NCBI RefSeq assembly: GCF_033473495.1
Contig: NC_088943.1
Location: 1,778,001-1,842,000, forward strand
Direction: 5' to 3'
Source of the DNA: Cercospora beticola
Taxonomy: Eukaryota > Ascomycota > Dothideomycetes > Mycosphaerellales > Mycosphaerellaceae
DNA: 64,000 nt
Below, piece after piece: positions 30,200 to 57,930 of this stretch (position 1 is the stretch's first letter; every line of letters starts with the position of its first letter). Both the position numbers and the translations under genes were made by a program. The notes below the pieces were generated by a model. The model made no database searches. It saw nothing but the letters and a program-made list of their open reading frames with translations, and had not been told where the DNA came from.

Positions 30200-30548
30200 T
30201 CGCGGTGGCACAAATACTGTTGTCGTCGGAGTGCTGTGATCGGGACAGTTTCGCACCCTGTCTCACGAGATGCGGGCCTCAGCTAGTGCCCAAGACAGCA
30301 TAGGGTGTGCTTGGTGCACGGGCCATCAGTCCCTTTGGCTCCCTCGCCCTCGACGTGGCAAGGAGAGCCGGTCTGGCCCAAGCCACAAAGTCGGCCGAAC
30401 AGCAGCACGTTTTCTCAGCAGCATTTGCGAGCTTCACACGTCAGAGATCGCTCACGACCACTGATTGCTGTCAACATGGCCACCGATCCAAACTGTCTGC
30501 CTACCCATGCCAATACAGCCAAAAATTCGAATTCAACAAGTCTAAATG
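30200..30548. other. spacer between the tandem GT91 genes
   Basis: 349 bases that must include the promoter of copy 1. No other feature was seen. Confidence 0.4.
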
Positions 30549-35400: not shown

Positions 35401-35694
35401 CACAGTCGGGGCGACATAGAAGCGATCGCGCACGGGTGGCGCCTGGTCGAGACTATCGTCGAGCATTGGAAAGCCATCTGCGCCGTGCTCAGCCCGTGCA
35501 GCACTGATCAGCCTCCAGTAGACTCGGATAGGCCGCAGGGAGCACAGCACATTGGCATGATACCGCCATGTAGTGATGCTCGATGGCTCGGTCCCGTACT
35601 TAAGATTCATTGGCCCTACGCATCACTTTCTTTTCCTTCACCCACTCCCTCGCCCACCCAACCATTGACGGGGAAGACCGTCCGAACCGCCATC
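32456..35694. other. gene-poor, GC-rich stretch
   Basis: About 3.2 kb upstream of the adhesin gene. From about 33600 to 35500 the DNA is GC-rich and open in several frames on both strands (up to 293 codons), with no recognisable domain in any. A GCTGTY hexamer run lies at 33624-33667. The word GTGAAGGCGAAGGCG occurs near 33675 and 34562. I would not call a gene here without transcript support. Confidence 0.4.
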
Positions 35695-38600
35695 ATGAAG
35701 TTCGGATCTATTCTGGCGGGGCTCACTGTCCTTCCATTCGCTTTGGCCGGCCCAGTTCACGATGCCGATCACGAATTCGCAGAGCTCGTGACCAGGGATA
35801 CTACTCTCAAGGCCAGAGCAAATGCCCCTGGTTGCCCTCTCCGAAGAGAGAATCCCCCGCGCCGTGCCGTGTGCGAAGAACCGGGAACTATTGCAACCCG
35901 CTTCTCACCGTTCAAGACCTTCCTGTCCGAGTCGAACGACTTCCGGGACTGTTACTACGCATGTTATCCAGACCGGAGCTGTGTGTCGTTCGCCTTCGAC
36001 TCGGTCAGCAAAAACTGCTTGCTCTTCTCGCGACGTGTGGCCCGAATGGGTTTTACCGAGGACACCACCGCCAGCCATGTCTTCTACGACTTCGAGCAGT
36101 GCTTCCAGTACCGGCGATGCACGGAGGAGCCTAATCCCTACCCTCCTCTTGGAACCACAACTACCACCACAACTACCTCGGCGGCTACTACTACCACCAC
36201 CACAACGACTCCTGTGGCCACCACGACCACCACAACGACTCCTGTGGCCACCACGACCACCACGACAACGTCTGCGGATACCACAACCACTATGACAACG
36301 TCTGCGGATACCACAACCACTACGACAACGTCTGCGGATACCACAACCACAACCACTACGACAGCGTCTGTGGATACCACAACCACTACGACAACGTCTG
36401 CGGACGAGACTACTACTACTACCACCACGACTGCGGATGAGACTACTACTACTACTACTACCACGACCAGCGCCGGCGCTGGTCCAACTTGTGTCACTTC
36501 CGGCAGCCCCGTTCTGTCGTACACTCCGTACGGAGCCAATTTCCAGATCCTGGATCAGACTGTATTCGGCGACCAGCCCCCAAGCCGGGACCTCTATACT
36601 GCCGATACTGCGCTCGTACAGACTGTCACCCAGAGCGGTGTGGGACTGAACAATCTGGCGTGGATCAACGCCAACTGGCCTAATGGAGTTAACGGCATCG
36701 TGGATCTTCAGTCGAAGCCGCCCATCAGCCAGATCGACCTTTCCACAAAGTCCGTGTATGTCCGGGGTTACTTCATCGCACCAGCCGCTGATTCCTATAC
36801 CTTCACACTTGCTGCCAACAAGGATGATAACTTTGCGCGTTTGTGGCTCGGCCCTGTCAACACTGCCAACCCGACAGAGGCGAATGCAGACCTGAAGATC
36901 ACCTTCGAGAGCCCTGAAAGCACGACAGTTGTCACAGTCACAAGGCCGCTGATCGCGGGTGAACTTCTCGAGTTCGCATACCTCTGGTCCAATGGTGGCG
37001 GCCAGGCTCAGAGTTTCCTTGGAATCACTGGTGCTTTGACCGGCGATGTCTCCTCGGGTAACTTCATCGGAGATTGCAACCCAGACACGTCCACTACTAC
37101 CACCACCACCACCACCGCGGCTGAGACTACCACCACCACCACCACCGCGGAGGAGACTACTACCACCACCACGACTGCGGATACCACGACTACTACGACA
37201 ACTAGTGATACCACGACCACCACGACAACTAGTGATACAACGACAACCACTGATACCACGACGACGACTGATACCACGACAACCACAACCGACACAACGA
37301 CAACCACAACCGACACGACAACCACAACCGACACAACCACTACTACTGACACCACCACCACCACTACTGACACCACCACGACAACCACAACCACTGCAGC
37401 GATCCTGCCAACCTGTGTTTCCAGCCAACCACCACTAGGTCGTCGTGGACTAATAATCGACCCAGTCATGCCCCTCTACCAAGGTGGCTCGGGTGCCAGC
37501 TACATCGTTCTGGAATCAGGTCCTTACACAGACAGCAGCAATCCAGCCGACTATGACGCCGGTGTCGCCTTGTGCCAGCCCTACTTCCCATTCGCGGTCC
37601 CGAACCCTGGCTCTGGACTGCAAAACTTGAACTGGGCCAACCCGAACTGGCCAGACAACGGTGGCGACACTGCAGCTACTTTCGATCTGCCAACCACTCC
37701 AAATCCATCGCGATACATCATTGCAAGGGGTTCAGTCCTTGTACGGGGATACTTCGTGGCTCCATCTCCTTCCCCGTTCACCTTCTCTCTGGATCCAGCA
37801 TTCGTGGACAACCACGAACGCGCCTGGTTCGGTGATGCCGCAGCGAACCCAACGGAAGCTAACGCCCAGCTCCGCAGTTCTCGTGACACTACACTGCCTA
37901 ACCAACTCACATCTTTTACTTCCCCAACACTCATAGTAGGCCAAGCTTACCGATTCGCCTACCTCTGGACCAACGCCGGCGGACAGGGACGCAGCAATCT
38001 CAGAATCAGCAAGGGCTCCGTTATTGGTACAATCGACGAGTCGGACGGCAACTTGATCAGCGACTGTGTCCCAGACACTAACCCAATCTGCCCTACCACT
38101 ACTACTACAACCACCACTACTACCGATACTACTACTACCACCGATACTACGACAACTACTGACACCACTACTACCACCGATACCACCACAACTACGACTG
38201 ATACTACTACCACCACTACCGATACTACGACCACTACCACCGATACTACAACTACGACAACAGACACCACTACTACTACCACCGATACCACGACGACGAC
38301 GGACACCACTACCACTACGACTGACACCACTACTACTACCACCGACACCACTACTACTACCACCGATACCACAACGACGACGGACACCACCACTACTACC
38401 GACACTACAACTACGACGGATACTACTACCACTACTACTACTACCGCGGCCGGCCTTCCAACTTGTGTCTCTGACCCAACTAGGGAAATTCTGTACTCTG
38501 CTACCGGTGGTGGCGCCAACTACGTCGTTCTCGAACAAGACAGCTTTTCTGACAGCAATCCAAGCGTCTTCGACGCCAACGTCGCCCTCTGCAAACCAAG

Positions 38601-39888
38601 AAGCTCAATTATGGGTGGATCAGGCTTGACTGACCTGAACTGGGTCAACGTTGGCTGGCCAGGCAATACTGGCGCCGACGCGGGCATCGTAACGCTGTCG
38701 ACACAATCAGGCCCAGTATCAATCAACGTTCCAAACCAGTCCATCCTCGTACGAGGCTACTTCATCGCACCGAACCTGATCCCGGATACCTATACATTCT
38801 CCGTTACCACAGCCAATGTGGACAATTTCGAACGAGCTTGGTTTGGCGGCAATGCAGCCAACCCAACCGAGGCCACCGCGGATATTCGCGTGAACCGCGA
38901 CTTCGCTTTGTCCAACCAGCAGCTTTCCTTCCAATCAGGAGTACTCGTACAGGGCCAGGCACTCGAATTCGCCTACCTCTGGTCCAATGGCGGCACGCAA
39001 GGCCGCAGTGAGATCATTATCACTGCCTCCGCAGGCAATGTCGTGTCGACTGGCAACTTCGTTGGTGACTGTACTCCACCACAAAACCCCCCACCAGTCT
39101 GCAGCCCTGCTACTACGACGACCACCACTACCACGGCTGAGACTACCACCACAACTAGCGATACTACAACCACCACGACCGACACCACTACCACCACTAC
39201 CGACACTACCACTACTACGACTGACACTACTACCTCAACCACTACCGACACGACTACCACAACCGACACTACAACTACTACCACCGACACCACCACAACT
39301 ACTACGACTGACACTACAACGACCACCACTGAGACGACCACTACTACCACGCCTGCCACCACCACGACAACCACCACGACAACCACCACGGGCACTACGA
39401 CGACCACAACCAGCGTCGGTGCGCAAGCTACGTAAGTCCCACTTTCCCGCCCTGTACCATTCTGCATACTGACACTTTTTCCCAGCCCATTCTGTAACCC
39501 GAACGTGCGGGAAGAGACCAACGTGCCTGGCGCCGGAGGCTGCTCGAGCGAATGTTATTGCGACTTCGAATCCGGCTCTGGTGGAAATCGTGTCTGCGAT
39601 CCCAACCCTCGACCAGCTGAGCCAATCCGCCGCTGCACATCTAGTGCCCAATGCGGTCTGAACGAGTTCTGCGCTGGAGGCTTCTATGCCCGCTTCTACA
39701 ACACGCCTGTCTGTGTGACTTACAGTGGATGCACGAGCAGCTACGTCGACCCACGAACGCCTCGTGGTCGCAAGCGAACGGTCAACGCTCGTAGCGTGGC
39801 CATGCCCGCCATCTCCCAGATTCACGACTGGAACATTCGTGTGGCAAACATCACCGATGGCGTTCCATACATGCCAGAGGACCAGTGA
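35695..39888 (+). CDS. secreted Thr-rich adhesin with three GLEYA-like modules
   Basis: Two exons, 35695-39431 and 39486-39888 (54-base intron), 1379 residues. Signal peptide KFGSILAGLTVLPFALAG. Order: an N-terminal Cys-containing PAN/apple-like domain (about 40-150); Thr-rich tract 1 (153-259); GLEYA-like module 1 (262-461); Thr tract 2 (465-567); module 2 (570-795); Thr tract 3 (800-918); module 3 (920-1129); Thr tract 4 (1138-1240); a Cys-rich C-terminal domain ending RVANITDGVPYMPEDQ. The modules share VRGYFIAP..YTF, DNFxRxWxG and FAYLWSNGG, as in fungal GLEYA/PA14-like lectin domains. A dibasic GRKRT site lies in the C-terminal domain and no GPI signal is visible. The Thr tracts should be heavily O-mannosylated, fitting the mannosyltransferases around it. 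The role in adhesion is inferred. Confidence 0.85.
36154..36470 (+). repeat. ACN triplet repeat coding Thr tract 1
   Basis: Imperfect run of Thr codons broken by short Ser-Ala-Asp type units (CTGCGGATACC and variants). Similar runs lie at 37090-37395, 38093-38450 and 39110-39415, in the last three mostly as Thr blocks separated by single Asp. Confidence 0.85.
37090..37395 (+). repeat. ACN triplet repeat coding Thr tract 2
   Basis: Repeats of four to six Thr codons with Asp or Glu between them. Mixed synonymous codon use points to an old tract or one maintained by recombination rather than simple slippage. Confidence 0.85.
38093..38450 (+). repeat. ACN triplet repeat coding Thr tract 3
   Basis: The longest tract, about 119 codons. 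Near-regular Thr5-6/Asp units. Confidence 0.85.
39110..39415 (+). repeat. ACN triplet repeat coding Thr tract 4
   Basis: Thr blocks with Asp, Glu and a few Ser, ahead of the C-terminal Cys-rich domain. Confidence 0.85.
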
Positions 39889-41272
39889 TCTCGTATTGTC
39901 AATTTTACAGTCACTGATCCTCGAAGCATGATGGGATCATGACCACATTGTTCTGTCATTATCATTTGCATGGCTGCGATCGTTTTGGAAAAGAATGGAA
40001 GATGGGGAGGATTTTGGTTTTTTTTTCTATTCTGCTGCTAGCAAGCGTGACGGCTTCTGCACTGATTCTCGCAACGACAGAGATCAGACAGTAACGATTC
40101 GACGAAGAAATAATCTTAGAATGGATGAGACAATGGGAAACTTTTGGTATTTTTCTTGAAATGTAGATTCTCATCATGTATGGATGGCAATGTCATCCAT
40201 TGCTACTCTGTTTTGAATCTAAAGGACAATTTTTACTTTCTATCACTGCTGGTGCACTTTACCATCACCATTGCGCTGTTCCTTCTGATGATTGGATAAT
40301 GTCGCCCAATGCAACAGATGGGGACGAAAATTCTGGTTTGCACATAAAATACATCGATTGACCAAGTGAAGTCGAAACTTGAACCTGAGCAAACATGGAA
40401 CAACCTCAACGGTCACCATCGGCCTTTGAAAAAGGAAACCGTGGGTCCTCCAAAACATCACAAAAATCCGGGGGCCTGCAGAGACCCGGAAATCGCTGAC
40501 TGAGCCGAGACACGACCGCACCATCTACCTTCAACCGTCTTGTCGCCCTTTCTGCAACGTCAGCGAATAACGCCATCGTCACCAAAAAAACCCAAACCGA
40601 AGGGGCACCGTTGAGACGCACAACGGGCGAGATCAGCTCTCTCCCTTTGCACATCCGAATCTGCAGCATTTCTGGTCCTCCAACTCTTTTAGGAAATAGA
40701 GTTTGGGGTACATGGCTCTTTGTAGCGAATTTTAAATTTCCACTTGTGGAACGCCACAAAAGCCTTTTTCCGTCCTCGCTTATCACTTTTGACGACTTTT
40801 GGAAGGGCCGAGACATGCAGGTTTCTTCTTGGCGGTAGCCAGCCACATTTTTTCGTGCTCTCGCTTTCGATTGCCAAGTATCAGATGCGCTGCGGTTGAG
40901 GCGTTTGGGTTTGGGGACTAGGTACTGCTATTGTGGAAGCAGGAGCATGGGCCAGATGGGGATATGCAGGGCTGGTGGGAGCTGGATGAGCTGGAGCTGG
41001 AGCTGGGTTGCTTTGGTTCTGATGAGGTGAGGGGATTTTTTTTTTTTTTGGTTTGGGCCGCAGAGTGAGAAGGAAGCAACGATTTGCAGCGGCTCTTTCC
41101 TTTCCCCCTCCTCCGCTACGCGTCTTCCTCGAGAACTCACGAACGCGTCTCTGATGACACTTGGGGGTGAGGGGCACTCATCATTGGCTGGGCATTATTT
41201 TTGTTTCGCGTGTTTTGGCGATTCGACGATTTTCTTTTCCCAATCGGACACAGATTGCAAGTCATCTCGAAG
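39889..41272. other. intergenic region
   Basis: About 1.4 kb with a T run at 40018-40026 and a longer one near 41037-41051. A 146-codon minus-strand frame (40846-40406) has no recognisable domain. No gene supported. Confidence 0.4.
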
Positions 41273-43344
41273 ATGTCAACGGTCGTCTGTTTCTCAAGAC
41301 GGAAGCGTCGAATCTTGCTTCAGCGTTTGGTCTTCATATTTGGCGTTTCCATATGCATCTGTCTTGTCTTTTTCCCGTCTACGGCACGCGCCATTGTGCA
41401 ATCACTGGCTGGACCAGGGATTAAAGATACAGAGGTCGTCAGCAAGTATGGGAAAGGCTCATCAAGTGTCCCTGACGGATTTGCAGATGCGGCAGATGGA
41501 TCGTCAATAGCAGGCGCGAGGCACGAGGAATATGAATCGTCAGACGGGGCATCAGCGCTCGATGCAAGGCGCAGCGAGTATGAGTTGTCAGACGGATCAG
41601 CGAGACTTGATTCGAAGCACAACGAGCACGAGATGGAAGAGCAACCGCGGATGTTCCGAGGCCGACCACAATACCCTGGACAACGAAGAGGTGGTCCGCC
41701 CCCACGGCAGGAACAACAACCATTGAAGAAAACGAAAGATCGGTCCGAGGAGGATATCGCAGACAAGATTCGCGACCTGGAAGCTTTGCTTCCCAGCGAT
41801 GATTTCATGGAAGATTTACTGTCTCCCCTTCCAGAAGTTGGCGGACCAACACTCCTCCATGCACTGACGATTCGCACTCGCATGTTCAAAGAAGCCTTCG
41901 AGGCATGGGAGGATTTGCATTTACACGAAGATGGAACTTCGGCTGTGCAATCCCAGGATGTGATCAATCGCCTCAGCAAATCCAAAACGCTGTCTCGAGC
42001 TTCTCGGAAGGATGCGATCCATGTCTATGATACATTTCGCGCGTATTTCACTTCGCTGGCTGAATTGCTGTTCCCTTGGACTATGCCGTACTACAGTGAT
42101 CATATGTCGCTGCATACTAGCTTCTATCAGGGTGGCAAGGGCATTGTTTTCACGGGCGGTGACAAGCAGGTCCGGTACATTATGACTTCGATCAGAGGCA
42201 TTCGCGAGATGGGTTGTATGCTTCCTGTGGAAGTGTTGTTCTTGGGGGACGAGGATATTCGGGAGGAGAACAGAGACAAGTTGGAAGAGATTGAGGGTGT
42301 CACGACACGGAATATCGCACAGATGATTAGAGACGAGGGATGGACGTTGAGAGGTACGCGGTCCTATTCTTTCTTTCTTTCCAACTCTCGAAGTGTGGGA
42401 GTCTCTAACATTTAGCAGGCTGGGCAGCAAAACCTTTCGCGATTCTCATGTCCTCTTTCCGAGAAGTCATCTTTATCGATGCCGATGCCCTCTTCCTGCA
42501 AACACCTGATTTGCTCTTCCACAGCCCCGGATACGTTGAAACAGGAGCTTTGTTCTTCAAAGACCGCAACCTCATGCCTGAGAATCGTCGAGATTGGATC
42601 AAATCGATCCTGCCGAGACCTCACTCCGCGAACGTCAAGAAGAATAGAATGTGGACTGGCGAGAGCGGGCATATGCAAGATTCTGGTGTTGTTGTGATCG
42701 ATAAATGGAAGCATTTCGTCGCTCTCCTGCTCACTACGCGAATGAATGGACCGGATCGAGATGGAGACAAGAAGATTGGGAAAAAGGGCGTTTATGAAAT
42801 GGTATACGGCGATAAAGAGACCTTTTGGCTGAGCTGGGAAATGGCCGGCGACCTGGGTTACAGCTTTCACGATAGCGTTGCTGGCACCATGGGAACACCT
42901 GGACCACTCGAACCCGCCGAAGGCGAGAAAGCTCCCGAAGAAGAAGTAGATGAAGATGAAGACGAACGAAAGCCCGTGGGCAGCGGCCAAGAGCCACCAA
43001 ACGATAAAGCCCCCAAGAAAAAGAAGAAGAAACCCAAGGGACAAGGTGAGGATACAGTCTGCTCTTCACAACTCCTCCACTTCGACGACGAGGGTATGCC
43101 TTTCTGGTTCAATGGCTGGCTCGCTCGCTCGAAGGAACACGACGCCAGTTTAGAGATCTATCCGCGATTTGATGGGTATATGACGGAGCCTCCGGAGACT
43201 GGCAAGCACGAGAAAGAGGGGATTACGTGGCATGTACGCAAGTCGAATGTTGTGTGTTTGCACAAACAGACTTTTACAAGGTTTACGTATCAGGATCAGA
43301 ACAATATGAAGATGTTAGTGAGGATTGCGAAGGAGTATGTTTGA
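41273..43344 (+). CDS. GT71 (MNN1-type) alpha-mannosyltransferase, second gene
   Basis: Exons 41273-42353 and 42419-43344 (65-base intron), 668 residues. The start is the ATG at 41273; the longer frame upstream begins only with TTG. Type II Golgi protein with an anchor at about residues 17-38 (VFIFGVSICICLVFF), then a long, acidic and disordered stem (about 60-180). Catalytic landmarks: KGIVFTGGDKQVRYIMTSI, LPVEVLFLGDEDI, KPFAILMSSFREVIFIDADA with the DxD at about residue 381, SGHMQDSGVVVIDK and VYGDKETFWLSWEM. An acidic/Lys-rich insert (about residues 523-575) interrupts the domain before the final conserved WHVRKSNVVCLHKQ. It is closer to the classical MNN1 layout than the gene at 25811. 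Probable role: mannose addition to wall glycoproteins. Confidence 0.92.
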
Positions 43345-45360: not shown

Positions 45361-48300
45361 TTACGCTCCTGCCCCCGCATCCTTCAACATCTGCACAATG
45401 GTCTCATGGCCTGCGGCCATGGCTAAATGTAGCGCGGTATCAGAAGTTCCTCGCCGAGCGTGCACATCCGCTCCGGCGTCCAACAGCAGCTGCACGATCT
45501 TCGCTTGGCCCTTCGAAGCTGCCAGTTGTAGCGGGGTCTGCAATCGCTCTTCGATGCCAATTCTTCCGCCAAAATTAACGTCAGCCCCGGCGTCGAGAAG
45601 TAGCTGCACTACTTCCTCCTGTCCACTCCGTGATGCGGCGTGCAGCGCGGTATTGTCGGTTCCCTCGGAATAAGCATTGGCATTCGCCCCGCGCTCCAAC
45701 AACATCTGAACAATTGCGTGGTAGCCATTACCGGCTGCTACTTTCAGCGCAGTGCTACGAAGACCTTCATCGGCGTTGGCGTCCGCTCCATAACGTAACA
45801 ACGCCTCGACTACATAGACGTGGCCATTGGCAGATGCTGCTTGGAGGGCGTTGTCGTGATATCCACCTTGAGCGTTCAGGTCCGCTCCAGCATCTAGCAA
45901 CATCCGGACTATATGGACGTGGCCATTGACAGATGCTGCTTGGAGGGCATTGTCATACTGTCCTCCTTGAGCATTCACGTCTGCACCGTCAGTCAGAAGA
46001 TCTTTTACTACTGCGCCGAGACCTAGGAAGCTTGCATAATAGAGACCTGACCCGATACTTTCAAGCGGCTCAAAAGAATCTCTCCACGGCGCATCCGGTT
46101 GAAAAACGAGGAGCCAGTCCCTCATTGCCGGTGAGGTAAGCAATCTTATTTCGTCAATAGGCTGGCCGGGCTGCGCGCGAGATGCATGGTAGGACCAGTG
46201 TTGTGCTGCATATTCGAGTAGCGGGAAGGAGACCAGATCCTCTGGTGTGCACGTTTTCTCGCTGCTCTGACTGTAATGTATAAGGTAAATTATACAGCTC
46301 TGAGCGATGATTGTGTGCTCGCGAGCACTGTCGAGGTGAAACTTCCGCGCATCTCCAGCGAGCGAGCGTTTCGACTCCAAGAATTCCAAAATAGAGAAGT
46401 GTGCCAATCGGATGATGGTATCCTTTGAAATGTAAGTTGGTAAGTCCAAAGCAGGAGTGGTACCTGATTGAATATCATCGAGATCATTGTATGCCTCATC
46501 CTTGGACATAACGCTCGGTTTAGCCAGTGCATCGCTGCCGCCTTCAGATTGCGAACCGGCACTCTGTACGACAACTAACCCCGAGAGTATCTCTAACGCG
46601 TCGTCCAATCTTGGACGTTGGTCCGTCTCTACAAGTCCTGGGTCCGTCATGAAGTCGATAATGGTGACTTCTGCAAGCTCCCGGAGATGCACAGGAGGTT
46701 GAGCGTAGGCGAGCCATCGAAGCATCTTTAGCCCGTCACTGGCAAAGTCTGCAGAAACTCCAAGCAACATCCGCTCGTAGGTCGCATCAAGAGTGCGTGG
46801 AAGGTCATCAAGTAGTCTTCTGACAAGACTAGACTTAAGCGATCTCATTTTCTTAAGTTCAAACAACTGGCAGTATGCCCACCGGAACCTATGAAACAGT
46901 AAGTCGTCAGTATAAGTGACAGGTACCAGGAGGAAATCTGCTTACATTCCATCTGCCCTTTGTGAAATCGTTTGTTCAATCAGTGCCTTTGTCTCCTCGT
47001 TTAAACGTGATAGCCGCGGGTCCCGCGAAAGCGTCGTGGTAACATACTGGCGAATATCTTCGTTGGTAGCCTGTGTCGGAATGTTCACCGATTCTGCCCC
47101 AAGTCGAATCATCGCGCTGCGGATATGCGGCATCTCGCGACTCGTGAGTAGAAATTTCACGTTTTGCCCTGTCTGCGACAGTCTCTGGAGGCATTCTATC
47201 ATCTTGTGCAATCGATCATAGTCTTCTGGGCATTCGTCCAGAGCATCAACGCAGACGTATATCTGGTCGTATGCTTCGAAACAGAGACTTAGAATGTACT
47301 CGAGCTCTGCTTCTCCTGGATGGCTTCGGCTCAGGTTGTCGTAAAGCTGTAGGAGCACCGATACGGCTCTTCCCTTCACACCTAGCTGCACGATCAAGGA
47401 GCGAAGTAGACTCATTTTACCGAAAGTGGCATCGTTGGAGAAACTGATATAGAAGAAAGCATAACCGTTGCCAGGACGATGTTGACAGTACGCTCTGATA
47501 TCTCGAATAGCGAGCGAGCACAGGGTGGTCTTGCCACATCCAGGCTTGCCATTCAACCACAAGTGGTGTGTCAATCCGAATTTCCAATCAAGGTATCGAT
47601 CCGATCTAAGAAACCATTGCCCAGTAGATGACTCGTGCAGCACGATCGCGCTGTTATACGCCATTTCGAAATCCGGCGGCGATAGCCAAGCTGTGATTTC
47701 CCGGAGTTGTTCTGCTCGCATTTCGGTTTCTTCCTCTGCTACAGATTCTTGATCTTCGGTTCTGTCTGCTGGATCGAAGTACTCGTCGTCAGGGATTGCC
47801 GGATATCTCGGGATGTCAGTTATAGGATCGTCAAAGAATTGCACTTCGCCGGCTGCTACAATCTCTTCGGTCGTAACGTGACAGTCATCATCGCTAAGCC
47901 AACGACTCAGAGCCGCCGCTGGAGCTGGATCTGGCCCCATATCTCGGGCGAGCATCATATCGTTCCAGGGCAGAGAAAGCAGTGCAAACTCATGCAAATG
48001 TTCAGCTAGATGATCCATGTAGGCACTGGTTTCTGAGGGAGGTCCTCGACTAATGTTGCAGACGGGACATTGGAGGGGGAGGTCGACATCTGTCCGTTGT
48101 GAGACCTTGAGCAGAACATCAATTCTATCGTTGTCGAAGAGACCTGCATGCAGAGCCTGAACATGATTTTGCAGACTCGCAGTGGTCACGTAGGGGGACT
48201 CATCGCTGCAGAACGGGACATCTCCAGTAAGAGAGTGTTCGGTGGTGGGCCTCGAGATGTTTCTGCCAGTCTTTCTTCTTGACAAAGAATCTCGTGTCTG

Positions 48301-49381
48301 CCGTGTAGCTGACAACGGGACAATTGTAGGGATACACATCTTGAGCCAGATGCTTCCTGGGGGCTCGATCAACTCAAGCAAGACTTTGCTAAACCGTACT
48401 TACTTACCTCCAATTTCTATCATTGGCGCCCATCCTTTTAGGCAGCACCTGACAGCAGCAAGGACACTTGAAGGCATGCTCTCTACTTATCCTTGGTGCT
48501 TTAGGATAGGCTAACTTGTCTTGGGAGACGGAGAACTGCGATACACTTGGGGCGTAAAGCCCTGTGTGCTCTTGGTCATTCGTCAAAGTTTGCAGTGAGT
48601 CCAAGTTCAAAGTCGTTATTGCTGAAGCGGAAGATTGACTAGGAATACCCTTGACTAAATTCGAAGGCATTGAAAGGGAGTTAGTCGTAGGAGGTATCTC
48701 TGCCAGCTCCTCCTTTGGGTGGGTAGGTTCCTGAGCAGTTATTCTTTGTGTCGTCACAAGGATTGGATTGCCACGATCGGGAGCTGCCAGCATGTCGGCT
48801 CTCTTCCGAGCATATACAAAGCGATGTCGACGCCGCAGGTTAGCAAGTATCAGGACACTTTGATCTGGTCTGATGTCGCTCGTTTCCACAGAAGTGATAG
48901 AAAGGGCAGCATTCGTACGCAGGGAGCCCTCAGTGTTTCTGCCAGGCGTCTGAAGGTTCTGGAGCCTAAGCGCGAAAGCCAGATATTTCTCAAGATCCTG
49001 ATGAAAGCGCAGATCGAAGGTCAAATCTGCTTTCATGGTTCGCGACGACACGCCCGCGCTTCTGACCAGATTCGCAAAGTCGATAAGCCGGCGCAAAAGA
49101 GTCTCAGCATCCTGGCAGCACTCATTGAGAGCATGCAAGCCCTCAACAATAGCCCAATCGTCAGCACTTTCATCAGACTCATCCGACTCGACATCCGATG
49201 ACCAAGGAGATAGCGACAACGGCGAGCTTGTGCCATCGAGGACAGTGGAGGAGTCGCTAGTTCCAGGAGAGTTGCCGGTTCGCAGATTTGCCAGCATCGG
49301 AACACGCTTGAAGACCCCTGTGAGACTCTCAAGCACCGAGAGCAACATTTGTGCAGCGTTCTGATGGTAGCCTGCAGACAT
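45361..49381 (-). CDS. NLR-like STAND protein: zinc-finger-like N-terminus, NACHT, ankyrin repeats; one-base frame break
   Basis: Intracellular sensor of the fungal NLR class. Exons by eye: 49381-48408, 48356-46946 and 46888-45361 (introns of 51 and 57 bases), about 1300 residues. The N-terminal helical region is followed by a C2H2-like zone (CPCCCQVLP, then WQKHLEAHHRTLSYWRCP). The zone continues one frame over as FCSDESPYVTTASLQNHV, so one extra base is present around 48214-48217. Then come EHLHEFALLSLPW, a NACHT domain with Walker A LNGKPGCGKTTLC and Walker B VCVDALDEC, a winged-helix-like part (LPRTLDATYERML), and about six ankyrin repeats, the first two nearly identical. It is divergent from the S8 protease gene. 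Ligand-driven oligomerisation and cell-death signalling are family knowledge. The frame break makes activity uncertain unless it is a sequence error. Confidence 0.85.
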
Positions 49382-49739
49382 TGCCGCGCAGCTACCTGTA
49401 ACGCATCTGATGGATCGTGATCCTGTTCCATCGCCGGGCGGACAAGCGTCGGTGAGGGCAGAGTTCAGTGGCGGCACTCAAAGCTTGGTTGGTAGTGGTA
49501 TGTGAACGAGATCTGGCAGAGCTCTAGCTCTTTTGCTAGCTGCGGTTTCATGCTGCACAGTATAAATTGAGATCAAAGTGGTGCTTCTGAGAGACGTGGA
49601 GTGGGTGTGGTGCGGAAGGATCGAAAGCCGAAAGTCTAAATTGGGCACGGATCACGTCATGTGTGGACAGTGGTTCCAAGTCAGCCGCAACGAGCTCCCC
49701 TTGGACGACTGACAACATTGCAACACACATGTGGTTCCC
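49382..49739. promoter_or_regulatory. bidirectional promoter between NLR and protease genes
   Basis: 358 bases between two divergent ATGs. Short enough that both genes probably share control. A TATA-like CAGTATAAATT lies at 49558-49568. No other motif stood out. Confidence 0.45.
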
Positions 49740-52546
49740 ATGGACGGCACCGCGCTCGAGTTCGCGTGCGATGCTACGCGGGCTCTCAGCATAGCGGCCA
49801 GGGATCTCGCCAATACAGCTTCCAACGCGGCCGAGTCTCCAAAATTGATAGATATCGCCACCCGGCTCTTCAGCATCGCTGAAGTATTGGACCGTCCGAC
49901 CCCTGGACAGTCATCACCGCCATCCAAGCATGTGCTAAAGGTTTTGAGAGATCTCGAAAAGGTGTGTGCAGTGTAAGTCAAGTATTCTACGATAATCCTC
50001 GTGCAGAAAATTCACGTTGCAGTGGCCCCACAGAACCTATATTCCTCTGTCAGGACGCTCTTGTGATCCAAAAGGTGATTTTCCAAAACTCTATCAACTC
50101 TGCGAAGGTAAAATAGATCTCAAGAAAGTCGCGTACTCGCTCAAGCATATCGCTCGGGATGAGGTTGGAAGGAGAACACTGCAGGAACCTTGATTCTCTG
50201 CTTCCCCGGCGGCAGAAATCACTTGACAAATTCACACCACAGCAAATTGCTCCAGAGGAGATTCCAGCAAGTGTCTACGCGAACCTCTCTGCTGCATTGG
50301 TGAAATACGTCGAGTGTCGATGCGACGAAGGCCATGGTCTCCCAAGAAAGCAATGTGTGCACAACTTGTAGCTGAGACTGACTCACCAAAGCTTATCGGA
50401 TAGCGATGACATTGCAGTTGATACCGTGTATCAACTTGCCGAATGCCACTTGAAGGAGCATGTGAGCCATTGGACTTGCGTGAGATTCCGTACAGTCAAG
50501 AGAGCTCGTCTAAGAGCGAGGGCACGACCTGGGCCGCAGCCTACGAGTGGATCAAAACGACCTGTCCAATCTGAAGACGCTGCAGTGCCCGTCCATGCTC
50601 GCCTCTTGCTCGGTGGCTCCGACTTCTGCCAGCTTCTATTACTTCCCCGAGGTGCAGTGCGTCATCAGATCCTTGTCACGGCGGAAGGCCTGTATGACCT
50701 ACAGGACGTCATCGAAGCGGAGCAGATTCTCTTAAACAGGCCTGAAATTCAGCTCTCCAGAGCACTGCAGTCGTATAATCTTTCTGACGACGGCAAGATA
50801 TTTCTCGCACACAGCATCGCCAGAACACTATGGCAATTATACGATACCAAGTTCATCAATGGTCGTTGGACCGCGGACTCTATACACTTCGTCCAGGAGT
50901 CCCCAAACAAGAAAAGAAGGAAAGAAGACCTGGGAATGATTAGTCCGGTCCATCCCTTCGTGCAACTGCCTGTCGCGCACACAACCCAAACACAAACACC
51001 ACAAGAGACGGAGCTTGAATTTGTTCCTCACATGGGATCTGTCCATTGGGCACCTAGAATACTTGCATTGGGAGTAGTGCTCACAAATATCTTCAATGAC
51101 GATTATTCGATGGATGAAGATCAAAGTCCATGTTGGCAAGCCAGATTCAACGACGAACTGCTTGTTTGCCGTGGCATCGTGGAGAGTCCATCATGGCCGT
51201 CGCTCCAAATCAAGTCGGACCACGTGCGAGAAAAGATTCGAGAAGCGGTTCTAGCTTGCCTCAGAGGTGACGTCTTCAACAAACGGGAAGCCGACATCTT
51301 GGAGAGGAAGGCACTACTGTGGAAGCATATCGTCTCGCCACTGGAAATGGTAGGGAAACTTGTGGGAGTCGACAAAAATCGAGCAACGTGGCAGGCGAGG
51401 GAGGAATCTGTCCAAACATCCCAGCTGTTTTTACAGCGAAGGCCAGCGGAGAAGCAGAATGCAGCAAGGTTAGAAGTTCAGTGGTCTCGTCTTGCTTCAG
51501 TACTAACTGAATGGCGAGCAGTTCTCATTCGCAACAATGGCTCAGCCGTTTGGCGTCGTCTCTTCTCAACAAGGAAATTAACGCCTTCTATCGAAGCTCG
51601 GGCACCATGCGTACCAAGATTGCTATTCTGGACACTGGCTACGACCCCGAAAATCTCTTCATGACACGACCGCGCCAGAACCGGCTGAAGAATCGCTGGA
51701 AAGATTTCGTGGACGACTCTTCCAATCCTCTGGACGAAGACGGACATGGGACCCATGTTTTGGCAACTCTCATGACAATTGCTCCATCGGCTGATGTCTG
51801 CGTTGCCAGAGTTGCAACAAACGACGCAGATTTCGACAAGTCATACGAGAATATTGTCAAGGTCTGTCCATCATCGGCAGAAAGTCGTATACAAACTGAT
51901 TGAGATGACGTAGGCCTTGGAATGGGTAGTGAATGATATGGAAGCTGACGTCGTGTCCATGTCTTTCGGGTGGCCTCAAGAGAGAGAATCCCGTGCTATT
52001 TCGAGAGCGATCTCCAATGCCATCAGTATAAGAAAGGACGCTATTCTGTTCTATGCTGCGGCATCCAATTCCGGCGGCGACCAAGGTGAAATGTTTCCCG
52101 CAACCCACGAATTTGTCACTGCCGTCAGAGCTACAACACACGAAGGAGAGTTTGTCGGATTCAACGCGCCACCCAATTTTGGAGGGGCCGACGTGATTGG
52201 CACTCTCGGAGTTGACATGCCTGGCGCATTTCAAGAGTCTCAGGCGACAAACGAGAATCTTGAAGGAACCTCATTCGCGGCGCCAGTCGCAGCAGCGATC
52301 AGCGCTCTGGTATTGGACGCTGCGAAGATGTGCGACCCTATCGTTGAGCTCGGATCGACGAACAACATGCCGAGGACAGTCACGACACTCGACAAGCTGC
52401 GAACACGGCATGGCATGAACAAGATGTTCTGCATCGAACACATGGCTCGAAAGATCAACGAGAGATCCTGGTATTTGAGCGCAGCTGGCTTTTGCAACAG
52501 ATCCTACATCGACAGGAAGAAGATATTTGAGTATATACTGCTTTGA
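49740..52546 (+). CDS. subtilisin-like (S8) serine protease with helical/DUF7580-like N-terminus; N-terminal half damaged
   Basis: Front half: a short helical domain (ATG 49740), then a DUF7580-like region (KKVAYSLKHIARDEVGRRTL, CRCDEGH, LAHSIARTLWQLYDTKF, HWAPRILALGVVLTNIF). Back half: an intact S8 catalytic domain with Asp in AILDTGYDPE, His in DGHGTHV, the oxyanion Asn in AAASNSGG, and Ser in EGTSFAAPVAAA. Clear introns are 51469-51521 (53 bases, TACTAAC branch) and 51862-51913 (52 bases). Problems are in the front half only: the first intron fits the frame only if it is 34 bases long (49973-50006), an apparent extra base sits near 50184, and an in-frame TAG lies at 50369. In Podospora the S8 protease HET-Q2 cleaves the gasdermin HET-Q1; the next gene here looks like such a gasdermin. 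A shorter protein from a later start could still be active. Confidence 0.75.
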
Positions 52547-52772
52547 ACCGCTAGCTGCAACACGCAAGGCAGTGGTGCGGGGTCTTCATCAGGAAGCTTC
52601 TGCTCACGAGGAAGCTGCGCAAGATGCAGCTTGCCGTAGTGAACGATTATTGGTCTTCACTGTGGAAGGTGCAGCTCGCGTGACGTACGATGCAGCCTCT
52701 TCAGCCGCAGCTCAACCCACTTCGAAAGAGCATTTTCTGACACGGCGGGGGTTGCTATCTCTTCCACAGACT

Positions 52773-53603
52773 ATGGCGACTAAGACCTACATTCTCGCAC
52801 CCAACCTCACCACACATCCTGGCGATGCCTTGGCTATCGGCACGATTGTAGCCGAACCATTCCGACCTTTGAAGCCATTGAGCGAGTGCAAGGAGACGCT
52901 CGAAACAGTGACACATACCGAATTCGAGGCTGCATTGAGCGACTCTTCCAGACGTGGGTTCTCCAGTGGCGTCTGGGCTCAGTTCCTAGAAGTCGCCAAT
53001 GCAAAGCTGTCCGCGAAAGTAGGACGAGATGTTCGAGCAACTTACGCTATGGCGTATCTCGAAACAATTACATTGCGACAACATCCTGGAATCGAGTACG
53101 CCGCTGCTCGTGCCCAGGAGCCAGCAGTCAGAGCAGCAATGGAATCTGGCCTGTTGGGACGGCAGCCCGTGTGCATGATTACTGGGGTGAAGATTGCGAA
53201 AGGCTTACAGTGGTCTCAAGAGCAAATTCGTTCACTGTCAGGTGAAGTCGGAGCCAGTATACCGATCACTCCGGAGGTTTCTGCCGGTATTGAGATTGGT
53301 GCCGAGAGAGCATCGGAGCATCACTATTCATCTCGCACGGAGCAGGATATTGTCTTCGCTTACCAACTTCATTTGATTGCCACCAAAGGGTGGTGGAAAC
53401 CAAAACTCTCTGTCGACCAGTACGTTCCCAAAGGAGGTCTATTGGGAAAGAAGGATCACGGTGAAAGTGATGACGTAGATGTACTTCCGGCTACTAGCGA
53501 TGATTTGACGGTTGTTGCGGAGGACAATGAGGATGAATTGCATTCGACTGAAGTATTGGAAGCAGGCGAGAGTTGCCTGTGTTTCCAGATCAAGGATGAA
53601 TGA
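52773..53603 (+). CDS. probable fungal gasdermin-like protein (HET-Q1/RCD-1 type)
   Basis: Intronless, 276 residues from the ATG at 52773; the frame reaches further upstream only from TTG. No signal peptide or membrane helix. Residues 1-220 read as a compact, strand-rich domain (TYILAPNLTTHPGDALAIGT, FGSGVW-type SSGVWAQFLEVANAK, GRQPVCMITGVKIAKG, QDIVFAYQLHLI). Residues 222-276 are an acidic, low-complexity tail. Length (HET-Q1 is also a little under 280 residues), the short acidic C-terminus and above all the S8 protease gene 226 bases upstream on the same strand match the fungal gasdermin gene pairs. In those, the protease removes an inhibitory C-terminal tail so that the N-terminal domain can form membrane pores. 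The identification rests on pattern and context, not on a search; an unrelated fungal family cannot be excluded. Confidence 0.6.
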   Translation: MATKTYILAPNLTTHPGDALAIGTIVAEPFRPLKPLSECKETLETVTHTEFEAALSDSSRRGFSSGVWAQFLEVANAKLSAKVGRDVRATYAMAYLETITLRQHPGIEYAAARAQEPAVRAAMESGLLGRQPVCMITGVKIAKGLQWSQEQIRSLSGEVGASIPITPEVSAGIEIGAERASEHHYSSRTEQDIVFAYQLHLIATKGWWKPKLSVDQYVPKGGLLGKKDHGESDDVDVLPATSDDLTVVAEDNEDELHSTEVLEAGESCLCFQIKDE

Positions 53604-54300
53604 TGGTTCTCCGTGATCGGGAGATTCGCAAGGCTGTTGACAGATAGAACGGAGTGAACACCGCGAAAAGATTACTTGATGCCAGTTTTGCAGCCTGAAG
53701 AAAGGCTCACGATAAGTCAACAAGAGCCTAAAGGTGGCGTTGACAGACCCAGCTAGCACTATGGGCGCCTCGTGCTTGATAGCTGAGAGAAGGCTCGGGC
53801 GCATCCAGGCCTGCATAATACAGGCAACCTCTTAAGGACAACGATCAAAAGTGGAGCGTCCGACACAAACATTGAAAGCATTCCATGATCGTTCAACATC
53901 ATGTTTGGCGCACAAGTCTAATGCGTTCTCTGGCGCAGTAAATTTGCTGGATCTCGAGGGTTTGTTTGATCTCAACCTGTCAATGTACAACAGTTTAGAG
54001 TGTGAATGCCTTGAAGACCTCTCACGTTGTACCAATGATCAATGTTCGCGATGCGGAGAGATGGGACAATACCAAAGCCGGCTTTCTCGCTACTATATTT
54101 GTTAATGCTAGACAAGATGTCTACGTATCTCAGGGGGCGCGGCTGCGAGATGCTCAGGTGGGAGCCTAAGAGCAGATATTGACGCGCCGTACTAGTCTTG
54201 AAGTCAAAGTGGATTTTATTGGTTCGGCAGGGATTGAGCACATGGCAGCATCGATGGTTCACTCCCACGCGTCAACCTAGCTCTTGCCAAGACATCTTTG
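53604..54300. other. convergent intergenic region
   Basis: 697 bases between the stops of the gasdermin-like gene and the HET gene. No gene or repeat was seen. Confidence 0.4.
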
Positions 54301-56905
54301 CTAGATAAATGCTAGCTCTTCCCATGGCTTCCGATACTCACATTCCATCATCTCACCCATCATCATTCCCTCAACAAAAGCTTCACCTTTCATGCGATAT
54401 CTTTTAGATCCATCAGCTTCCAGCACTTCCGTGGCGATCACTGGTCGTCCATGGCCCTTCACAATGATTACAACGTCCCCCTGCAGCAACACTATTCGGC
54501 ACAAGACCCAGGAAGCCTCGCTCTGTAAGCATGAGCCTTTTCCTCTTCGTACGGATGGCGACGGTCTGTCTCAAGGCCCATGTATTCTGGCTGATCATGT
54601 TATCCATTACCATAGTGTCGTCCGGGTTGAATAGGTAGTGTTTTATAGGCACGCCACCTATTCTCAAGTCCCAATTCGCCGCAACAAAGTATTGGGCTGG
54701 GTCCGCGAATGTCCAATCAACGACGAAAGAACCGAGCAAGTCAGGATTCTCACGCCCATAACGAAGCCTCGCCCCGTTCTCGTCCGTTCCAGCAGTGAGG
54801 CATGCACAGATCGCTGCTTGGAGGCTGATGAGTTCCGCGCGCCACGGAGAAGAACTCCTTGGCTGAATGAGGTCGTAAACGAAGTTCGGATCCCCATAGT
54901 CTGTGTCTGTGTCCACGTCTGACCATGCGATACCACCTAGACCGTCCACAGCGTCTATAACAAACCCGCTCAAGTACAATGTCCGATCTCCACCCAACTT
55001 GATCTCAGGTCGAGCATCTACATCCTCCCAACCATCCTCTGCTAGAAGATTCCATTCATAGTCCGGGGGGTATCCTGCTCGAAACGTACCCTCGATGATT
55101 CCAGTCTCTCTCTCTGACGATAAATCCGGCACCCACGAGGGCAGCCTCTGGTGATCAATCGCCTCCATTTCGTCGTGTCTTTCCCGATTCTTGTCGAGCT
55201 CATTTGTCACGCCATCAACAAGGCAGAGAAAACTCAAAGGATCCCGACCCACGTTCATGCAAGCAGCTGCAAATTCGCCGTAGATTTGTGCGAGGGGTCG
55301 TTTCGATACATGTTCGATTGCAAGGTCGGGCAGACATGGCAAAGCCAAGATGCCGAAAATGCGGTCTTCAGGAAAGGAACATCTTGCGTAAGCTATGAGC
55401 TTCAAGACCTGCCAGAGAACATCGCCTCGCTGTGGACCCGTGCTTGGGCCGCTACGTAGGTGGGTGATCAAGGGCATAACGGTGTTCGGGTCGAGGGTTG
55501 GTTGAATTTGTCTCCGATGCGTACCGATTCCCAATTGTGCGATATTCGCAACGTGCACGATGGTGTTTCGCACAGCACAGTCCATCCGGTAGTCCTCGAC
55601 AGCCACATGAGTGAACATGTCTTTGACGGCGGCGAGTACGAACGCGGCATCACGAACGTAACGCCATTCAGTTACCCGTTCACCAAGAACCAAAGCCATA
55701 TCTGCAGTACCCATTACCAACTCTTGAATCATCCAAAGACGACGCCAGTATGTGAGCGAGAAGAAAACATTCAGCAAGGCCGCCTCTTCGCCCGTGAGGA
55801 TGATATCTCGGCACGAACTGCGTGCTAACGACTTGATTTTCTCCATTGCAATCTTCATGTCCACAGCTGCGCCCTCCCTATGCAGGAAAGCTCTGTTTGG
55901 GTGTCCATCGTCGTACGCTTCTAGATACTCCGAGCGATACCATCTCCCACACACTTGGACAACATCGAGTGCTCTGTATAGTTGAGTGTCTCCTTCGCCG
56001 AGCCAAACGAGAACGTTACCGGCACGTTGGTAGATTGAGCTCATGATCTTCATCTGTGCCTCCTTTTCTTCTGAATCGTTCTGGTTTATGCAGATTGCAT
56101 CAGCCCAAAGGCGGCAGCCCTGGCTAAACTGGGGCATCACACGGAGTCTACGCAATGCTGCGTGCAGGTTCTCGCGAATGACGAATGGTGATTCGCCAAC
56201 TCGGTGGCCTTCAGCAGAGCGGTGCTCGATAGAGATCTTCTCAGCAGGGCCATCACCCCACTCGTACGAGAGTGCCACATAGTTTCCCCAGCAAAACTTT
56301 GGTCCACATGCCTGCCTCCGGAGCGGTGGTGGTGTCGTCCGTTTTTGCATTCGTGTCAACCAGTGGCGTAATATTTTCTTCAGCCCGCGGCGTACTGCAC
56401 TGCTTAATCTTGAAGATTTCGCTCTGTCGTCGTCGTCATCATCGTCATCAGTCCTTTGATAAACAATGGTCATTCCCCCACCGTCGTCCTCCGGATAAGC
56501 CGCTAGATCTGCCAGAATCTCTCCAGGAGGTAGTGAAGTCTTCGCAGCGGACTTTCGGGGTTTGACGAGCCACGGCTTCCCATTCGTGTTGCTCGGAATT
56601 CGGCCAGCTTTCGAATCTTTGATCAAACCGAAAGCATGTGGCGTTCTATATATCTCACTTGGACGATTTTTGACTTGCGCATGAAAGTTGACACTCGGAA
56701 CTCGGGACACAAGCGCATCCTCTGGGATGCCCGGGGCCAAGTAACATTTGCAAATGTGGACTTTTGTTAGGAGGCATTTGATCGGGCTGGTGTTGTTGAC
56801 ATCCTTCTTTGGTTTCGGTAGGATCGTCAGCAAGCGTATGCAATCGTGATCACCTGGGTAGAACGGTGTGCAAGGGAACTCTATGTTGGGAGGCCTCTTT
56901 TCCAT
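54301..56905 (-). CDS. heterokaryon incompatibility (HET) domain protein; frame break in a G run near its end
   Basis: Cytosolic HET-domain protein, about 867 residues if the frame break is ignored. The N-terminus (1-200) has a poly-Asp run; the HET domain begins at about 209 with YVALSYEWGDG and continues through LWADAICINQND, MSSIYQRAGNVLVWLGEG and WRRLWMIQELVMG, all diagnostic. The main frame runs from the ATG at 56905 to 54413. The family's C-terminal block (GLVPNS, then DVVIIVKGHGRPVIATE and YRMKGEAFVEGMMMGE) continues in another frame to a stop at 54301. The switch lies in a five-G run (54477-54481); four G would restore the frame. HET domains trigger cell death on encounter with a non-self partner. 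It lies convergent to the gasdermin-like gene, and a relic of a related gene lies 0.7 kb upstream. Confidence 0.9.
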
Positions 56906-57930
56906 GGTTTATGGTGACGCTGTAGGTATGGCAGAGGAGAAACATCGGAAGTGATATGTAGACAATTGTGCCTTTTCACAGCATGTCACCCAGGCATAAT
57001 TGTTCGTGGCGGGGCGTGATCCCGGCGGAGGGTTCGTGTGGCTACTGGCCAATTGGACTCGAAGGCGATAAAGAGCTGTTTCGGACCAAACTACAATATG
57101 GCCCAGGACGATATTGATTGGACTTTTGTCCACCATGCATACACCAGCTCCGAGCCCCTCGCTACACCGGTAAGGCGCCCGCTGACAGACTTGGGGGATG
57201 AGTGCCTAATTATAGAACACGGAGCATCCGGGACATAAATCCCATGGGCCGACTACTTCGAACGGGGCCGAAAAGAGGTCTAGGGGTTTGCATGCCATAG
57301 ACCTCAATGCCCGTGCGATCAATGTCAGGACCGTTCCGCGCGCAGCTTTTGGACAAGACTGCCTTTTAAGATATCGTTCGAGGTTCTGAGCTGGAGAGCG
57401 TGTTCATCGTCGTATCGATCAAGGCTAACCTGTAGGCGACCTCAGCAGAGATAGGTCGCATTGGCACAACGCTGGAATGCAAGCGTGCAGTGCGGATAGA
57501 TGTATCGTCCTGCTGCTAATAGATTGCATCGCAACCTTCGATGTCTGGCGTCGGCATTGCGGCTTTCGATCGTGTAGAGCTTTGCGGGGCATTTCTGCAA
57601 AGTTACTCATCGTTCCAGGTAGTCGATGCTTTGTCCACGCATCTCTTCCGTCGCTGTCTTTGACACGATCAAGCACACATCCGACATTGCCAAGGTCTTG
57701 ACCCATGTTCATGCAAGCAGCTGCGAATTCGTCGTAGACTTGTATAGGGATCTTCCCGAATCATGATCGAAACGCTGTAGACATGTCGTAGAAGAGATGT
57801 AGCAGTTAATGTGTATAGAGCAATACGTATTCTGCGCACCTGCGACGCTGCCTTACCTGCAAGAGGCTGGTGTCTTCGCCGCGTCCTGGATCAAAGCATC
57901 AGGTTACGACGAACCGTGTGCTGTCTCGCC
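56906..57930. other. intergenic region with gene relics
   Basis: Contains a HET-gene fragment (57600-57765, minus) and a plus-strand protein-like stretch ending at 57237 (DLGDECLIIEHG) that recurs near 59685-59770. No intact gene. Confidence 0.5.
57600..57765 (-). pseudogene. fragment of a HET-domain gene
   Basis: The minus strand reads IPIQVYDEFAAACMNMGQDL and continues for about 30 more residues, matching PLAQIYGEFAAACMNVGRDP of the intact HET gene. At DNA level it aligns with 55245-55295. No HET core domain remains around it. Confidence 0.7.

What the first reader, a model, noticed from the sequence alone, without database searches (positions are those of the whole stretch)
45361..56905. 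NLR, subtilisin, gasdermin-like and HET genes in one 11.5 kb island
A NACHT-ankyrin gene is divergent from an S8 protease gene, which is followed on the same strand by a gasdermin-like gene and then a convergent HET-domain gene. In Podospora anserina the S8 protease HET-Q2 cuts the gasdermin HET-Q1 to cause incompatibility death, and fungal gasdermin genes tend to neighbour protease genes. A separate NLR sharing the protease's promoter suggests a three-part sensor-protease-pore system in which the NLR could gate the protease. Together with the HET gene this would be a fungal self/non-self and death locus.
Basis: partly seen in the sequence, partly recalled or inferred. Interest (0 to 1): 0.9.

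Follow-up and report, generated by a model that had tools for sequence, protein, structure and literature searches.

The report
Fungal gasdermin cell-death gene cluster
A fungal chromosome carries a pore-forming suicide protein next to the protease likely to switch it on, and back-to-back with a receptor gene whose relatives sit in the same back-to-back arrangement elsewhere in this genome, hinting at a shared front end for different cell-death weapons.

The parts
52773..53603 (+). fungal gasdermin, 276 aa, no intron; pore-forming part about residues 1-222, low-confidence linker 222-239, C-terminal tail about 240-276 (possible inhibitory tail)
49740..52546 (+). gasdermin-activating-type protease (Q2-like): N-terminal region, pseudokinase DUF7580, S8 subtilase; proposed exons 49740-49970, 50023-51468, 51522-51861, 51914-52546 (splice sites by reading, not by RNA)
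   Evidence: Pfam, spliced reading of the last three exons from 50375 on, homologs, kinase-like fold, catalytic motifs
50777..51346 (+). DUF7580 match: kinase-like C-lobe without HRD and DFG motifs
51522..52546 (+). S8 subtilase domain with Asp (AILDTGYD), His (GHGTHV) and Ser (GTSFAAP) motifs
50187..50371 (+). breaks in the homology-supported frame of the protease N-terminal region: probable frame change near 50188, in-frame TAG 50369-50371
   Evidence: tblastn with P0024, P0026 and P0031 runs across the TAG (P0024); positions; the annotated C. beticola protein P0022 starts downstream
45361..49431 (-). NLR: N-terminal helical segment, C2H2 zinc-finger block, NACHT/NPHP3_N, ankyrin repeats; ATG of the long first exon 49381, ATG matching the C. 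kikuchii start 49431; proposed introns 48407-48357 and 46945-46889
   Evidence: C. kikuchii ortholog P0040, 77% identity
47965..48478 (-). receptor-family C2H2 block of the NLR, interrupted by a frame change near 48215
49382..49739 (.). divergent intergenic region between NLR and protease (308-358 bp, depending on the NLR start)
54413..56905 (-). HET-domain gene, 830 aa, one open frame; probably an incidental neighbour

Best explanation
The locus is a fungal pyroptosis-like death unit. The S8 protease, carrying a pseudokinase domain as its regulatory part, cuts the gasdermin in the linker before its C-terminal tail, and the freed N-terminal part forms membrane pores (inferred from the HET-Q1/HET-Q2 precedent). 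The divergent NLR belongs to a small receptor family whose members, in this genome, lie back to back with DUF7580 or S8 genes; I infer that such a receptor controls the pseudokinase part of its partner and so releases the protease. In this strain the receptor and the N-terminal region of the protease are damaged while the gasdermin and the protease catalytic domain are open, so receptor control of this copy is probably weakened or lost. Shown: gene identities, fold, catalytic motifs, linkage pattern, frame breaks against relatives. Inferred: cleavage, pore formation, control of the protease by the receptor.
For: Gasdermin by profile and fold. Protease of a family in which 12 of 17 hits carry both DUF7580 and S8. 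Linked pair in Oleoguttula (LTR95_008645 gasdermin, LTR95_008644 protease, both on a 12937-bp contig), Beauveria bassiana (both hits on a 424472-bp contig) and Friedmanniomyces simplex (one annotated protein holds S8 plus gasdermin, P0025). Second gasdermin-S8 pair on C6; 2 of 2 gasdermins found in the genome are beside an S8 gene. Receptor block: 5 places in the genome at E<=1 with the L032 query, 5 of 5 divergent from a DUF7580 or S8 gene at 2.8-3.6 kb between match centres; DUF7580 by Pfam in 4 of the 5 partners. Four left-out members are recovered by a profile of the others at E 6e-18 to 4e-13, and the intact C. kikuchii NLR at 8.4e-13, where two other C2H2 proteins reach 2e-4 and 0.01. 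ATG-to-ATG gaps are similar in four pairs: 394, 385, 269 and, in the window, 308-358 bp.
Against: The C6 protease has no detectable DUF7580, so one of the five pairs rests on the S8 domain alone, and the C6 receptor has a stop codon between its N-terminal part and its block (an intron or a lesion). The window NLR itself is the weakest of the five block hits (0.005), and its two pieces score 4e-5 and 0.003 with the profile of the other four. In the other left-out profiles one control C2H2 protein (L038) reaches 8e-7 to 2e-4. With the NLR-type query P0040, six places outside the window appear at E<=1, and four of them are not near any DUF7580 hit. The five pairs may descend from one ancestral pair. 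No hit named Oleoguttula or Friedmanniomyces is among the 107 NLR hits. The coding status of the protease segment 50023-50187 rests on a weak match (E 0.40). No expression, cleavage or death data.
Confidence: 0.62

Rival explanations
1. Two-gene unit only: the pseudokinase-S8 protein is itself the sensor and activator of the gasdermin (standard Q2-like cluster), and the NLR and HET genes are neighbours without a role.
For: Q2-like proteases are described as multidomain sensors in two-gene clusters (PMC10197012 section 15; PMC12881547 section 20). The C. kikuchii NLR is known, but no gasdermin or protease hit bears that name (several hits are unnamed). The NLR is damaged in this strain. HET is explained by abundance.
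Against: Five of five receptor-block genes found are divergent from a DUF7580 or S8 gene; a naive per-gene chance is about 5e-4, although the pairs may be paralogous.
Confidence: 0.27
2. A decaying locus: the NLR and protease are pseudogenes on the way out, and the gasdermin is silent or a leftover.
For: Frame change and about 45-residue loss in the NLR, TAG and probable frame change in the protease N-terminal region. The annotated C. beticola NLR P0039, on a 2174017-bp contig (the window's contig has 2471293 bp), reads the same shifted frame, so the NLR frame change is not private to this assembly.
Against: The gasdermin ORF, the S8 domain, the pseudokinase and the NACHT-ankyrin part are all open; a shortened protease could still work, since HET-Q2 is only 388 aa (PMC10989679, passage).
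Confidence: 0.3
3. A four-gene self/non-self island that includes the HET gene.
For: The HET stop codon lies about 0.8 kb from the gasdermin stop codon, the two genes being convergent.
Against: 124 HET-domain places in the genome, 0.034 expected within 5 kb of one gasdermin. No HET place within 20 kb of the C6 pair.
Confidence: 0.06

Closest known systems
HET-Q1/HET-Q2 of Podospora anserina (fungal gasdermin and S8 protease)
   Same: Gasdermin of similar length (276 against 278 aa), short C-terminal tail, S8 protease; linker 222-239 lies where HET-Q1 is cut (F238; PMC10989679 passage).
   Different: Here both genes lie side by side in one genome instead of as idiomorphs; the protease carries a pseudokinase; a divergent receptor gene is present; incompatibility not shown.
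Q2-like (Q2L) protease-gasdermin two-gene clusters of fungi
   Same: S8 protease next to a gasdermin; protease fused to a kinase-like domain, an architecture mentioned in PMC12881547 (section 20).
   Different: A separate divergent receptor of a recurrent family; not mentioned in the sections and passages I read.
RCD-1 of Neurospora crassa
   Same: Closest solved fold.
   Different: RCD-1 is activated by a partner allele, not by proteolysis (PMC12881547 section 20).
Mammalian inflammasome to caspase to gasdermin D
   Same: Separate receptor, protease and pore gene would be the same logic.
   Different: Another protease type, no shown contact between receptor and protease, receptor N-terminus is a C2H2 block.
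MLKL-like proteins (membrane-targeting helical domain plus pseudokinase)
   Same: Three partner genes of the receptor family (C2, C4 twice) have a hydrophobic start upstream of DUF7580.
   Different: Membrane activity not tested; the start and the DUF7580 part were taken as one gene across presumed introns; kinase fold tested only for the window protein; no HeLo match in Pfam for the two N-terminal ORFs scanned (the third was not scanned).

Membership tests
Fungal gasdermin (fGSDM) | Pore-forming gasdermin fold | tested here: met
Fungal gasdermin (fGSDM) | Sequence homology to known gasdermins | tested here: met
   Profile A1 to RCD-1-1 E 2e-9, RCD-1-2 5e-7, HET-Q1 0.021; all 5 hits at E<=1 are gasdermins
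Fungal gasdermin (fGSDM) | Short C-terminal inhibitory tail removed by proteolysis | not testable with these tools
   A tail of about 40 residues after a low-confidence linker is present; cleavage needs an experiment
Q2-like gasdermin-activating protease | S8 or CHAT protease gene within 10 kb of a gasdermin gene | tested here: met
   226 bp between the two reading frames
Q2-like gasdermin-activating protease | S8 catalytic triad motifs present | tested here: met
   window reading; present in P0022 and in the other 11 relatives listed there that have an S8 domain
Q2-like gasdermin-activating protease | Cleaves its gasdermin | not testable with these tools
   needs an experiment
NLR (NOD-like receptor) | NACHT-type NTPase plus repeat domain | tested here: met
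   NPHP3_N E 1.5e-30, NACHT 3.1e-5 (below Pfam's cut-off), ankyrin repeats E 3.9e-41; Walker A GKPGCGKT read
NLR (NOD-like receptor) | Intact N-terminal signalling part | tested here: not met
   about 45 residues lost and frame change near 48215 relative to C. kikuchii P0040
Pseudokinase | Kinase fold without the catalytic HRD and DFG motifs | tested here: met
Heterokaryon incompatibility (het) locus | Incompatible alleles or idiomorphs among isolates | not testable with these tools
   no fungal strain set available
MLKL-like executioner (partners on C2 and C4) | Membrane-targeting helical bundle before a pseudokinase | tested here: inconclusive
   Hydrophobic starts; no credible Pfam family for the two N-terminal ORFs scanned, L031:4468-5169 and L033:6929-7447

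The most novel reading that the evidence does not exclude
A divergent receptor-pseudokinase gene pair is a swappable front end for fungal cell death: in this genome three copies drive DUF7580 pseudokinases with a hydrophobic membrane-type N-terminus (necroptosis-like) and two drive S8 proteases beside gasdermins (pyroptosis-like), so one signalling logic would feed both kinds of death, with the NACHT-ankyrin part only one of several receptor tails.
Probability: 0.35. Interest if true: 0.86.

Novelty: new variant of a known kind. Interest (0 to 1): 0.66.

Why it matters
The 2025 review calls the regulation of the proteases that activate fungal gasdermins, and the stimuli of their sensors, open (PMC12881547 section 20). 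A small receptor family lying divergent from pseudokinase or protease genes gives a concrete candidate for the missing upstream sensor, and it could tie necroptosis-like and pyroptosis-like death to one switch. It also gives a genome-mining rule: look for the C2H2 block gene opposite DUF7580 genes.

Tried and rejected
HET gene as a part of the unit: rejected on abundance and on its absence near the C6 pair. Chance Pfam match TRH for the gasdermin (E 0.027): below cut-off, ignored. Homology of the window NLR pieces to the C6 receptor by pairwise BLAST: no significant match (E 0.079 and 0.66); the relation appeared with the intact C. kikuchii protein, with the L032 block and with profiles. DUF7580 in the C6 protease: not found by Pfam or hhalign, where five shuffles scored alike. 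Further gasdermins: single-protein searches gave the same two places; the profile over ORFs of the loci held at that time, L001-L030, added none; that covers only about 1.5 kb on each side of most S8 hits. Rfam: no hit in the window. PADLOC (5 proteins): a subtilase match for P0022; for P0040, PDC-M72A and Ankyrin over the repeats and three weaker ones; none for the gasdermin, P0024 and the HET protein.

Papers: PMC12881547, passages and section 20; PMC10197012, passages and section 15; PMC10989679, passages; PMC9815663, passages; PMC10684091, passages. Clave et al. 2022 (PMC8851545) is not held: known only through the reviews. That I know of no print record of the divergent receptor pair rests on the searches; the library lacks most subscription papers. 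A search for Cercospora beticola with heterokaryon incompatibility gave three listed papers, not opened.

Recalled and from no call: that Cercospora beticola is the sugar beet leaf-spot fungus; the classes of the named fungi; the HRD and DFG kinase motifs. Read by eye and not tested statistically: the shared helical motif before the zinc-finger block (aligned), the ankyrin repeats of the C2 receptor, the resemblance of the C6 middle region to DUF7580, splice sites.
Full report
What is there. The window is C9:1778001-1842000 of a 36.07-Mb genome in 10 contigs. The protease piece is 100% identical over 94% of its length to an unnamed Cercospora beticola protein, P0022, and the NLR piece is 100% identical to a C. 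beticola protein, P0039, so the species is C. beticola or very near it. Pfam finds NPHP3_N/NACHT and ankyrin repeats on the minus strand, DUF7580 and S8 on the plus strand, and a HET domain on the minus strand; the ORF at 52773-53603 has only a chance-level match.

Linkage of protease and gasdermin. In Oleoguttula sp. CCFEE 5521 the gasdermin is LTR95_008645 and the protease LTR95_008644, both on a 12937-bp contig. In Beauveria bassiana ARSEF 2860 both hits come from a contig of 424472 bp. In Friedmanniomyces simplex one annotated protein, P0025, contains the S8 domain followed by the gasdermin, perhaps a gene-model fusion, but it shows adjacency. For F. endolithicus the listed contigs differ, so nothing can be said. 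In the window's own genome, searches with three gasdermins found the same two gasdermin places. The second, on C6, has an S8 gene convergent with it. So 2 of 2 are paired. Reviews report about 80% of fungal gasdermins near a protease gene.

The receptor side. The N-terminal part of the NLR (a helical segment and a block of C2H2-type fingers) has no Pfam family. With the N-terminal part of the C. kikuchii ortholog P0040 as query, six places outside the window appear at E<=1; two of them, on C2 and C4, are close to DUF7580 hits, four are not. With the block of the C4:31-kb gene as query, exactly five places appear at E<=1: itself, C4:3.83 Mb (2.7e-9), C6 (3.8e-7), C2 (1.3e-6) and the window NLR (0.005, first part only, as the frame changes there). 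A third block query found three places, all among these five, and the C6 query found itself and C4. All five genes are transcribed divergently from a DUF7580 or S8 gene, 2.8-3.6 kb between match centres. Four partners have a Pfam DUF7580 match. The fifth, on C6, is the S8 gene of the second gasdermin pair; its middle region shows no detectable DUF7580. Four of the eight Pfam DUF7580 places have no receptor-block hit beside them (C9:41 kb, C7, C5, C6:435 kb).

Controls on the family. Profiles built with one member left out recover C4a, C4b, C2 and C6 at 6e-18, 2e-17, 4e-13 and 1e-16. With the NLR left out, the intact C. kikuchii NLR scores 8.4e-13 with no hit among 200 shuffles of it, while two other C2H2 proteins of the genome reach 2e-4 and 0.01; the two pieces of the window's own NLR block score only 4e-5 and 0.003. 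In the other four left-out profiles the better control protein (L038) reaches 8e-7 to 2e-4. E-values in these scripts are for an assumed 200000 sequences.

Receptor tails and partners differ. Receptors: C9 has NACHT plus ankyrin, C2 has ankyrin repeats downstream on the same strand (read by eye), C4:31 kb has a ubiquitin-like ULD_2 domain, C6 has further C2H2 fingers and a TGA between its N-terminal part and its block. Partners: on C2 and at both C4 places the partner begins MSGIE[IV]AG with a hydrophobic stretch and shows no protease, while the window protease begins without such a stretch. I took these starts and the DUF7580 parts as one gene across presumed introns. Gaps between start codons are 394, 385 and 269 bp, against 308-358 bp in the window. 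The chance of one receptor gene having such a neighbour is about 5e-4 by a naive count. The five pairs may be duplicates of one ancestral pair, so the figures must not be multiplied; even so, linkage kept while sequences fell to about 30% identity suggests that it matters.

Lesions. tblastn with P0040 shows the NLR in two frames that meet at 48215/48216 and a loss of residues 22-66 of P0040 near 49369. The C. beticola protein P0039, from a contig of another length, reads the same shifted frame, so this is shared with that record. In the protease, matches to P0024, P0026 and P0031 run across a TAG at 50369-50371, and P0024 suggests a frame change near 50188. An intron ending at the TAG could hide it only by removing a stretch that the relatives also have (by reading). 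The annotated protein P0022 starts downstream of both. The gasdermin ORF is open. Whether the short protease is active is unknown; HET-Q2 itself is 388 aa long.

The HET gene. 124 HET-domain places are found in the genome. 0.034 would be expected within 5 kb of a given gasdermin, and for NPHP3_N (34 places) 0.009. The C6 pair has no HET place within 20 kb. I treat the HET gene as a neighbour.

Judgement. Gasdermin plus pseudokinase-S8 protease: a new member of a known kind, near certain. Receptor coupling: a new and testable proposal, moderately supported from one genome. Allorecognition: possible, untested.

Noticed in passing
window 57425-57760 (-): A short open frame resembles residues 541-597 of the neighbouring HET protein (35% identity, E 8e-8 for the single comparison): probably a remnant of a second HET gene.
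   Followed up: partly
L034 4851-6087 (C9:41 kb): A DUF7580 gene close to the protease family (profile E 4.2e-31); I saw no S8 domain and no receptor block beside it.
   Followed up: partly
L004 1866-1868 (C6 receptor gene): An in-frame TGA lies between the N-terminal part and the C2H2 block of the C6 receptor: an intron or a lesion.
   Followed up: no
P0025, Friedmanniomyces simplex: One annotated protein joins the S8 protease to the gasdermin; a gene-model fusion or a true fusion.
   Followed up: no
window 25811-32219 and 41201-43344: Mannosyltransferase-type genes: two beta-mannosyltransferase open frames side by side, and Mannosyl_trans3 matches at 25811-27478 and in two frames at 41201-43344.
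   Followed up: no
window 35485-39435 (+): Long open frame with GLEYA domain and weak PAN-type matches, an adhesin-like protein.
   Followed up: no
L036 4877-9999 (C5): A DUF7580 gene with a HeLo-like start by eye, divergent from an open frame that reads like a protein kinase.
   Followed up: no
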